A DNA stretch of 34,088 nt from Oligoflexia bacterium (GTDB lineage: Bacteria > Bdellovibrionota > UBA1018): positions 1-34,088 of the forward strand of contig JAMPXZ010000009.1 of assembly GCA_023700925.1 (NCBI GenBank). Reading direction: 5' to 3'. Below, piece after piece: positions 1,759 to 26,684 of this stretch. The notes under the pieces were generated by a model. That model had not been told where the DNA came from. It saw only the letters and a program-made list of their open reading frames with translations, and searched no databases. Made by a program: the position numbers and the translations under genes. The stretch's first letter is position 1; every line of letters begins with the position of its first letter.

Positions 1759-1828
1759 GGTCGCCTTTGGCGACCGCCTCCGAACTTGGAATGATCCGCT
1801 TCGCGGATCGCCGAAGGCTTTGTTCCAA
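1759..1828. repeat. 70-bp hairpin repeat, copy 1
   Basis: Direct repeat of 2118-2187 with 5 mismatches in 70. It contains two perfect small hairpins, GGTCGCC-TTT-GGCGACC and ATCCGC-TTC-GCGGAT, nested within an outer inverted pair TTGGAA...TTCCAA. The outer arms match the T-arm of the nearby tRNA-Arg (CCAAGTTCGA). No coding sense is visible; the track ORFs here are spurious. Confidence 0.85.
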
Positions 1829-1842
1829 ATCCGACACACTGG

Positions 1843-2043
1843 GAGGCCACCATCTTCCACCCTCATTACGACCCAATACTTTCGGTCATTCCCCTTTCTT
1901 CTCGTGAGGGAGAGGGCTTGCGCCGGCCAGGGATGGCCACAAAGGCGAGAGGGCATGGATGCCCGTGCCTTAACCCTCACGAGAAGAAGGGGGCATGACA
2001 GCAAGATTTAGAGTTCGTAATGAGGGGGGAAGATGGTGGCCTC
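1843..2043. repeat. About 200-bp imperfect palindrome (MITE-like)
   Basis: Left arm 1843-1910 and right arm 1974-2043 are imperfect reverse complements. The outer parts (GAGGCCACCATCTTCC, CCCTCATTACGA) and inner parts (TTCTTCTCGTGAGGG) match well, with a divergent stretch between. The loop region holds two more hairpins, GGCCA-GGGA-TGGCC and GGGCAT-GG-ATGCCC. The arm ends contain the 3' end of tRNA-Arg including its encoded CCA. No transposase is present; it may be a non-autonomous mobile element or a structured RNA. Confidence 0.75.
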
Positions 2044-2052
2044 ACCAAGAAT
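2031..2052 (-). pseudogene. tRNA-Arg 3'-end fragment
   Basis: These 22 bases are identical to 2322-2343, which covers the trailer, CCA end, acceptor strand and part of the T-stem of the intact tRNA-Arg. The match stops before the T-loop, so this is only a fragment, in the same orientation as the intact gene. Confidence 0.7.
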
Positions 2053-2117
2053 GGCGCTCCGGCCCCTGCCTCCGCGCATCGGCAAGGATGCCGCACATCC
2101 TGTGCGGCTCATGATAA

Positions 2118-2187
2118 GGTCGCCTTTGGCGACCACCTCCGAACTTGGAATGATCCGCTTCGCGGATGAGCGAGGGCTTTGTTCCAA
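2118..2187. repeat. 70-bp hairpin repeat, copy 2
   Basis: Second copy of the 1759-1828 unit, 359 bp downstream, with the same two hairpins and outer tRNA T-arm-like inverted pair. It is immediately preceded by another perfect hairpin, GCCGCACA-TCC-TGTGCGGC. It leads directly into the left arm of the inverted repeat that mirrors tRNA-Arg. Confidence 0.85.
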
Positions 2188-2360
2188 GTTCGACCCTCGG
2201 GCGTCGCGATCTCCTCTTCAATTTCCCAAGTAAGCCTGAGGACTCGTGCGAGCCAGGAAGGCGCGAGCACAGAGGACAGGATGTCCGTGTCCGACATGGC
2301 TTACTTGGGAAAGTGAAGAGGAGATGGTGGCCTCACCAAGAATCGAACTTGGAACAAAGC
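2176..2360. repeat. Inverted repeat mirroring the 3' half of tRNA-Arg and its trailer
   Basis: Left arm 2176-2236 (plus) and right arm 2298-2360 (minus) share a perfect 18-base block, GCTTTGTTCCAAGTTCGA, which is the anticodon-stem end through T-arm of tRNA-Arg. They also share 28 of 29 bases of the tRNA trailer (ATCTCCTCTTCA, TTTCCCAAGTAAGCC). The acceptor-strand segment between is decayed in the left arm. The spacer holds further short hairpins such as GGACA-GGA-TGTCC. Confidence 0.85.
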
Positions 2361-2399
2361 TTTAGGAAAGCTCCGTTATATCCATTTAACTATGAGGCC
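2325..2399 (-). tRNA. tRNA-Arg (anticodon CCU)
   Basis: A complete cloverleaf on the minus strand: acceptor GGCCTCA pairs perfectly with TGAGGCC; D-arm GTTA...TAAC; anticodon arm GAGCT-TTCCTAA-AGCTT with anticodon CCT; variable loop TGTT; T-arm CCAAG-TTCGATT-CTTGG; discriminator A; encoded CCA. It reads the rare AGG codon. It lies 65 bp downstream of the SGNH hydrolase stop on the same strand, inside a cluster of palindromes that copy its 3' half. Track ORFs across it are spurious. Confidence 0.95.
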
Positions 2400-25459: not shown

Positions 25460-25613
25460 CCCCGAAAGGGGATTCACGAGAGCTGAGCAAGGCCCGAAGG
25501 GTGCCTGCCTGTCCGCGCTAAACGCTTTCGCGTTTCCCGCGGTCGCGGCTCCGGTTCGATTCTCGCCATCACAAATAACAAAGCCCACCGGCTGAAGCCG
25601 ATGGGCTTTGTTA
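25460..25613. repeat. Hairpin-rich mirror arm of tRNA-Cys
   Basis: It contains CCCC-GAAA-GGGG (25460-25471), AAACGC-TTTC-GCGTTT (25520-25535), then a plus-strand near copy of the 3' T-arm and trailer of tRNA-Cys: GTTCGATTCTC (25554-25564) matches the reverse complement of 25627-25637, and AACAAAGCCCA leads into the central hairpin. The sequence has the same design as the tRNA-Arg region. Confidence 0.75.
25576..25613 (-). terminator. Trailer hairpin immediately after tRNA-Cys
   Basis: A 17-bp stem (TAACAAAGCCCA/CGGC, loop TTCA on the minus strand) begins directly after the tRNA's CCA. The one non-Watson-Crick position is G-U in minus-strand RNA but A-C in plus-strand RNA, which fits a structure kept in the tRNA transcript. 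It is followed by the poor U-tract TATTTG. Confidence 0.75.
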
Positions 25614-25689
25614 TGGAGGTGACGGTGAGAATCGAACTCACAAAAAACGGTTTTGCAAACCGTCCCATTAGCCATTTTGGTACGTCACC
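25614..25689 (-). tRNA. tRNA-Cys (anticodon GCA)
   Basis: A complete cloverleaf on the minus strand: acceptor GGTGACG pairs perfectly with CGTCACC; D-arm CCA...TGG; anticodon arm ACGGT-TTGCAAA-ACCGT with anticodon GCA; T-arm GTGAG-TTCGATT-CTCAC; discriminator U73, the normal identity base for Cys; encoded CCA. It lies 70 bp downstream of the queE stop on the same strand, with an AGCAAGC-CCCG-GCTTGCT hairpin in the gap. Confidence 0.95.
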
Positions 25690-26579: not shown

Positions 26580-26684
26580 CCTCCTTTGGCAGCCCGGCTG
26601 ACAAGAACCGCCGGGGTAAGCGGTTCGTAGCCCCGTGGCTTTGCGTCCCGGCCTTTCGGCGCGGTTTGCCTTTTTCAAAGGGGG
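26580..26684 (-). ncRNA. Cyclic-di-GMP-I (GEMM) riboswitch aptamer
   Basis: The minus strand carries the core of the class I c-di-GMP aptamer in order: GGCAAACC, a stem capped by a GAAA tetraloop, GGGACGCAAAGCC, a second stem, then AGCCGGGCTGCC. P1 forms from CCCCCTTTG (5' end at 26684) and CAAAGGAGG, with one mismatch. The base just before CAAACC is G, the form tied to c-di-GMP rather than the A reported in cGAMP-sensing relatives. The aptamer is followed by hairpins (GGACC...GGTCC, GGGGTCCCC) and an intrinsic terminator before queE. Bdellovibrio is known to express an abundant riboswitch RNA of this class (merRNA), so a stand-alone RNA is a serious alternative to control of queE. Confidence 0.93.

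What the first reader, a model, noticed from the sequence alone, without database searches (positions are those of the whole stretch)
2176..2399. tRNA-Arg 3' half and trailer mirrored in an inverted repeat
The tRNA gene forms one arm of a large palindrome. An 18-base block from its anticodon arm through T-arm and nearly 30 bases of trailer are repeated in inverse orientation about 120 bp away, while the acceptor strand is decayed in the mirror. A read-through tRNA precursor could fold onto its own 3' half, blocking maturation or ending transcription; alternatively this is a scar of a tRNA-targeting mobile element. I know of no described element with this design.
Basis: partly seen in the sequence, partly recalled or inferred. 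Interest (0 to 1): 0.7.

Follow-up and report, generated by a model that had tools for sequence, protein, structure and literature searches.

The report
Folded inserts behind many tRNA genes
The mirrored half-tRNA is one copy of a family of small, non-coding, heavily folded inserts that sit directly behind many different tRNA genes in Oligoflexia bacteria and that carry both a backward and a forward copy of the host tRNA's end, most likely as the ends of mobile DNA that uses tRNA genes as landing sites.

Summary
The window's tRNA-Arg(CCU) (2325-2399, minus) has its 3' half and trailer repeated in reverse at 2176-2236. It is not unique. Reading away from the tRNA, the mirror is followed by a multi-hairpin module (Y) and an exact direct copy of the tRNA from T-loop to CCA (2034-2052). 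A second, truncated unit follows. The same plan (mirror, Y, direct copy) lies behind about a third of the tRNA genes of this genome. One Y family lies within 400 nt behind 17 kinds of tRNA/tmRNA gene across ten related genomes. Y folds are kept by covariation without G-U bias, which suggests folded DNA, not an RNA. tRNA downstream flanks are turned over between sister species while upstream flanks are kept, and tRNA-targeted integrase islands sit in the same arrays. Best reading: tandem arrays of tiny non-autonomous inserts at tRNA 3' ends, with arms made or kept by fold-back copying. The precursor-folding idea is not supported; the tRNA-targeting-scar idea is. Closest known: tandem cis-mobilizable islands at ssrA/tRNA genes. 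New here: no coding sequence, a conserved folded module next to the crossover, and mirrored tRNA arms. How the units move is untested.

The parts
2325..2399 (-). tRNA-Arg(CCU) gene; its 3' part (2325-2343, T-loop to CCA) is the sequence that is copied
2209..2325 (-). Unit 1 palindrome P1: arms 2298-2325 and 2209-2236 (28 nt, 96%) around a conserved three-way-junction core 2231-2302
   Evidence: arms; R1 hit, E 1.3e-15
2176..2193 (-). Unit 1 mirror M1: exact reverse-oriented copy of 18 nt of the tRNA, anticodon-stem 3' strand to T-loop (pairs with 2343-2360)
2140..2151 (-). Second, sense copy of the T-stem 5' strand (ATTCCAAGTTCG), opening the Y module
2034..2150 (-). Unit 1 Y1 module with its tRNA arms: hairpins inserted in the T-loop of a sense copy of the tRNA 3' half
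   Evidence: R2 hit, E 1e-18; alignment; covariation
2034..2052 (-). Direct copy D1 of the tRNA 3' end (ATTCTTGGTGAGGCCACCA), identical to the gene; att-like duplication
1843..2043 (-). Unit 2 palindrome P2: arms 1843-1871 and 2015-2043 (29 nt, 97%), core 1905-1980; arms unrelated to unit 1
1759..1835 (-). Unit 2 mirror and partial Y: 91% copy of 2118-2194; Y truncated, no direct copy at its far end
25554..25572 (-). Mirror of the T-arm of tRNA-Cys(GCA) (gene 25614-25689), behind its terminator; same plan, degraded

Best explanation
The mirror belongs to a ~290-bp non-coding unit inserted at the 3' end of tRNA-Arg. Read from the tRNA: CCA, then a terminator or long palindrome (P), then a mirror of the tRNA 3' half (M), then a conserved multi-hairpin module (Y), then an exact direct copy of the tRNA from T-loop to CCA (D). 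Units stack in tandem and are found behind many different tRNAs. Proposed working: units enter (and may leave) by site-specific recombination in the T-loop/3' end of the tRNA, catalysed in trans by an integrase such as those of the tRNA-targeted islands in the same arrays; the D copy keeps a second landing site. M, Y and D can fold into one long hairpin closed by tRNA-specific pairing, as expected of a folded (single-strand or cruciform) DNA site. The mirrored arms are made and kept identical by fold-back template switching at the hairpins. Shown: anatomy, recurrence, covariation, one-sided flank turnover, co-location with integrase islands. Inferred: recombination in trans, that the folded form is what is recognised, and template switching as the source of the arms.
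For: Direct or mirror copies of the tRNA 3' end beat all 200 shuffles downstream of 11/32 tRNAs (own genome) and 9/41 (sister species; one of these, Thr-tgt, is a neighbouring tRNA) against 1/31 and 2/41 upstream; exact 17-nt D copies behind 7 own tRNAs, 1-2 mismatches behind two more. Y3 sites in 10 of 58 genomes: 26 of 37 lie <400 nt behind a tRNA or tmRNA in the same orientation, 17 kinds, most with D at 16-17/17 (20 of 31 without the six model seeds). Y3: 25 of 31 pairs with double-sided changes, 90% of cells paired vs 68% shuffled and 34-45% slid; Y1 likewise; no G-U bias. Y3 cores are closer within a genome across tRNAs than between genomes (1/2000 permutations), so Y spreads among tRNAs while its arms match the local tRNA. 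D matches its own tRNA in each lineage (GAGGCCACCA own, GGGACCACCA in G020). Upstream flanks of orthologous tRNAs kept in 20/27, downstream in 6/27. Islands whose tyrosine integrase ends mostly 30-130 nt before a tRNA 3' remnant lie beside units. Arms change in concert between species (8:0 at Ser-tga unit 1).
Against: No integrase is shown to act on these units; excision or circles were not observed. Some D copies are truncated (6-14 of 17), which a fixed crossover would not give without later decay. A plain tandem duplication plus template switching could give D without any recombinase. No element-free/occupied pair of the same locus was found: downstream flanks are too divergent. All genomes are MAGs, and array contigs are broken at repeats.
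Confidence: 0.6

Rival explanations
1. No mobility: all parts arose by repeated fold-back template switching of replication at strong hairpins behind tRNA genes (mirror = one switch, direct copy = a second), with ongoing arm correction.
For: Template switching is known to create and repair stems with paired multi-base changes (PMC8794818). Arms are locus-specific, near perfect and change in concert. The same palindrome type sits at 3' ends of protein genes, starting at the stop codon, and copies the last codons of a fur-like gene.
Against: Does not explain a conserved, covarying Y module shared by 17 tRNA kinds, its fixed place in the T-loop copy, D ending exactly at CCA, or the one-sided flank turnover.
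Confidence: 0.2
2. RNA function: the precursor or a separate small RNA folds with the tRNA 3' half, controlling maturation, termination or acting as an anti-tRNA.
For: The transcript would fold very strongly (z -8.8); Y folds are conserved.
Against: Terminators often lie before the mirror; no G-U excess in arms or in Y; no Rfam family; the acceptor part of the mirror is decayed.
Confidence: 0.12
3. P palindromes are simply long bidirectional terminators of this lineage, and tRNA mirroring is a by-product of stem extension into the gene.
For: Outside tRNAs P sits in 3' UTRs on the gene strand; behind tRNAs either P or a terminator occupies the same place.
Against: Explains P only, not Y and D.
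Confidence: 0.08

Closest known systems
Tandem ssrA genomic islands and cis-mobilizable elements of Dehalococcoides (PMC3146451)
   Different: There kilobase islands with genes at one locus and a serine recombinase; here 150-350-bp non-coding units behind many tRNA kinds, with a mirror copy and a conserved folded module
Integron attC sites / gene cassettes
   Same: Folded structure conserved more than sequence, inverted boxes closing a variable hairpin loop, arrays at one anchor (comparison with attC from my own knowledge)
   Different: Anchor is a tRNA gene, arms are tRNA-specific, no IntI identified: the array integrase scores far below the integron cut-off (38 vs 265 bits)
REP/BIME and other bacterial palindromic repeats with RAYT transposases
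   Same: Short dispersed palindromes; RAYT-like Y1 genes present (12 in own genome)
   Different: P and Y are not found beside the RAYT genes with any confidence; P arms are locus-specific and very long
Template-switch generated hairpins (PMC8794818)
   Same: Perfect stems arising at once and changing in concert
   Different: Does not by itself give a conserved mobile module or direct copies ending at CCA

Membership tests
tRNA/tmRNA-targeted integrative element (cis-mobilizable type) | Direct repeat of the tRNA 3' end, T-loop to CCA, at the distal border | tested here: met
   Exact or near-exact D copies in most units
tRNA/tmRNA-targeted integrative element (cis-mobilizable type) | Tandem accretion with integrase-bearing islands at the same site | tested here: met
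   G029 tRNA-Ser: unit, integrase region, unit; G041 C16 and C18: island end then unit
tRNA/tmRNA-targeted integrative element (cis-mobilizable type) | Excision or mobilisation by an integrase in trans | not testable with these tools
   needs circle PCR or long reads
Integron | IntI-type integrase with its attI | tested here: not met
   The array integrase matches the integron model weakly (38 vs cut-off 265 bits); own-genome Leu integrase 39 bits
Integron | attC-like folded site with structure conserved over sequence | tested here: inconclusive
   Folded module with strong covariation, but recognition as a folded site not shown
REP/RAYT | Repeats flank or neighbour a RAYT gene | tested here: not met
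   R1 over 20 Y1-transposase loci gave only weak matches (best E 0.016)
Structured RNA family | Match to a known Rfam family | tested here: not met
   only tRNA above gathering score
Structured RNA family | Strand-specific G-U tolerance | tested here: not met
   16 GT vs 10 AC in well-paired Y3 columns, p = 0.33

The most novel reading that the evidence does not exclude
A structure-guided recombination system anchored on tRNA genes: folded DNA sites (M-Y-D) closed by the local tRNA's own 3' strand let one recombinase place short units and cargo behind any tRNA, an integron-like array that uses tRNAs as anchors.
Probability: 0.27. Interest if true: 0.9.

Novelty: new variant of a known kind. 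Interest (0 to 1): 0.7.

Why it matters
tRNA genes are the commonest landing sites of bacterial mobile DNA, yet why they are chosen is debated. A sub-400-bp, gene-free unit that carries tRNA-matched arms around a conserved folded core, behind 17 kinds of tRNA/tmRNA gene, would let one test whether tRNA folding itself (as DNA) is the recognised feature. It also gives a natural series in which stem arms change in concert, useful for measuring template switching in bacteria.

Tried and rejected
RAYT/Y1 transposase as mover: 12 and 10 copies in the two species, but P model hits near them are weak. HTH-like ORF beside the G001 and C140 copies: a repeat of an island right end, not part of the unit. 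Empty-site comparison at the same tRNA between species: downstream flanks do not align. fur-like gene: no palindrome in the three ortholog loci found, but which arm is original could not be settled. SGNH-protein scan for named relatives: nothing. Phage, plasmid and viral-contig searches for Y3: nothing.

Full report
What was checked. The window is a whole contig (G000:C206) of an 88.6%-complete genome.

Anatomy. On the tRNA strand the order is: tRNA-Arg ... CCA; palindrome P1; mirror M1 of 18 nt reaching into the anticodon stem; a hairpin; a second sense copy of the T-stem; hairpins; then ATTCTTGGTGAGGCCACCA, an exact direct copy of the tRNA 3' end; then a second unit with unrelated palindrome arms but a 91% copy of the mirror/Y part. 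The mirror is the distal part of one long palindrome that starts in the tRNA and turns at the P core. In other tRNAs a terminator hairpin takes the place of P.

Recurrence. I fetched all tRNA loci of the own genome, its genus mate G001 and a family member G020. Copies of the last 30 nt of the tRNA, direct or mirrored, beat all of 200 shuffles in the 400 nt downstream of 11/32, 9/41 and 5/40 tRNAs; upstream the counts are 1/31, 2/41 and 3/38. Several of the G001/G020 and upstream cases are neighbouring tRNAs in a cluster. Exact 17-nt copies are listed.

The P core. Sixteen cores align into a three-way junction in which 15 of 19 pairs have compensated changes. A model finds 17, 16 and 1 matches in G000, G001 and G020 at E<=0.1, most right behind a tRNA on its strand. 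Others sit in 3' UTRs with the left arm beginning at or near the stop codon, including a fur-like gene whose last codons are mirrored. Arms are locus-specific and change in concert: 8 of 8 at Ser-tga unit 1, 5 of 5 at Leu-taa, 4 of 5 at Gln-ctg, but only 2 of 10 at Ser-tga unit 2 and 1 of 3 at Arg (arms chosen by hand). GT and AC mismatches are balanced (73:60), so RNA pairing on one strand is not what keeps them.

The Y modules. Two were modelled (R2 for Y1, R3 for Y3). Y1 is the window's type; it occurs behind Arg, Leu, Asp, Asn, Glu and Ser tRNAs in the own genome, G001, G020, G022 and G006. Y3 occurs in ten genomes; 26 of 37 sites lie less than 400 nt behind a tRNA or tmRNA on the same strand, among them Arg, Ser, Gly, Leu, Gln, His, Phe, Met, Val, Tyr, Lys and ssrA. 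Six of the 26 are model seeds. Both models include the tRNA-derived arms, which may favour tRNA ends; against this, several hits beside tRNAs have lost most of D. The site reads TGGnnn (mirror of the CCA end), a hairpin ending in GTACCTTA, a mirror of the T-stem 3' strand, Y3, then T-stem 3' strand to CCA. Covariation is strong, with the caveat that the alignments were fitted to the models. Y3 cores cluster by genome more than by tRNA kind: modules spread among tRNAs within a genome while their arms match the local tRNA.

Array context. Between orthologous tRNAs of the two congeners the upstream 300 bp is recognisably kept in 20/27, the downstream in 6/27, and several of those six matches are the units themselves. 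A family of tyrosine integrases ends shortly before a tRNA 3' remnant in most copies: ordinary tRNA islands. In G041 C16 and C18 and in G029 C74 this remnant is followed directly by a unit; in G029 (integrase region) and G022 (no integrase seen) 2.5-3 kb lies between two units behind one tRNA. In G001 the tRNA-Arg unit lies on another contig than the gene, and its D copy is followed by the same 104 bp that follow the tRNA gene (99% identical), so D may have been used as a landing site. Own tRNA-Leu(taa) has an integrase 130 nt downstream, and an array with Leu-type D copies lies at the end of another contig, C222.

Interpretation. Direct repeats from T-loop to CCA with tandem accretion are the signature of tRNA/tmRNA-targeted integrative elements; in Dehalococcoides the ssrA islands have 20-bp repeats, insertion in mid T-loop, and many members without an integrase (PMC3146451). 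The present units share this geometry but have no genes, are repeated across many tRNAs, and carry a folded module plus a mirror. The mirror and the concerted arms are best explained by fold-back template switching (PMC8794818). That the folded site is what a recombinase recognises is inference only.

Limits. Draft MAGs, short-read repeats, no experiment, no named integrase for the units, rough model E-values, and no element-free site demonstrated.

Noticed in passing
L108, L109, L116, L119, L124, L125, L128, L130, L062, L080, L052 (G001): One IS-like repeat (GGCTCTTCCCCATTACGAGGGGCATG...) lies behind at least 11 tRNA genes of G001, within about 60-190 nt in most and about 450 nt at Leu-caa, mostly at a contig end.
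   Followed up: no
L194, L206, L212 (G010); L195, L207, L213 (G014): P-type palindromes with unique arms (about 40 to 165 nt), most beginning near the stop codon of a protein gene; 22 model hits in G010.
   Followed up: partly
window 26584-26679 (-): c-di-GMP-I-GGC riboswitch aptamer above the Rfam gathering score.
   Followed up: no
L223-L241: Multi-copy RAYT-like Y1 transposase genes in at least two subgroups, several sharing an upstream CATTGCCCC motif.
   Followed up: partly
L098 518-1582 (G000:C101): Tyrosine integrase of 354 aa 130 nt behind tRNA-Leu(taa): an island in the own genome.
   Followed up: partly
L007 near 1300-1480; L004 near 420-600; L055 5801-5900: Repeated small HTH-like reading frame at the right end of an island next to tRNA-Arg-derived sequence in two genomes, a remnant in a third.
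   Followed up: partly
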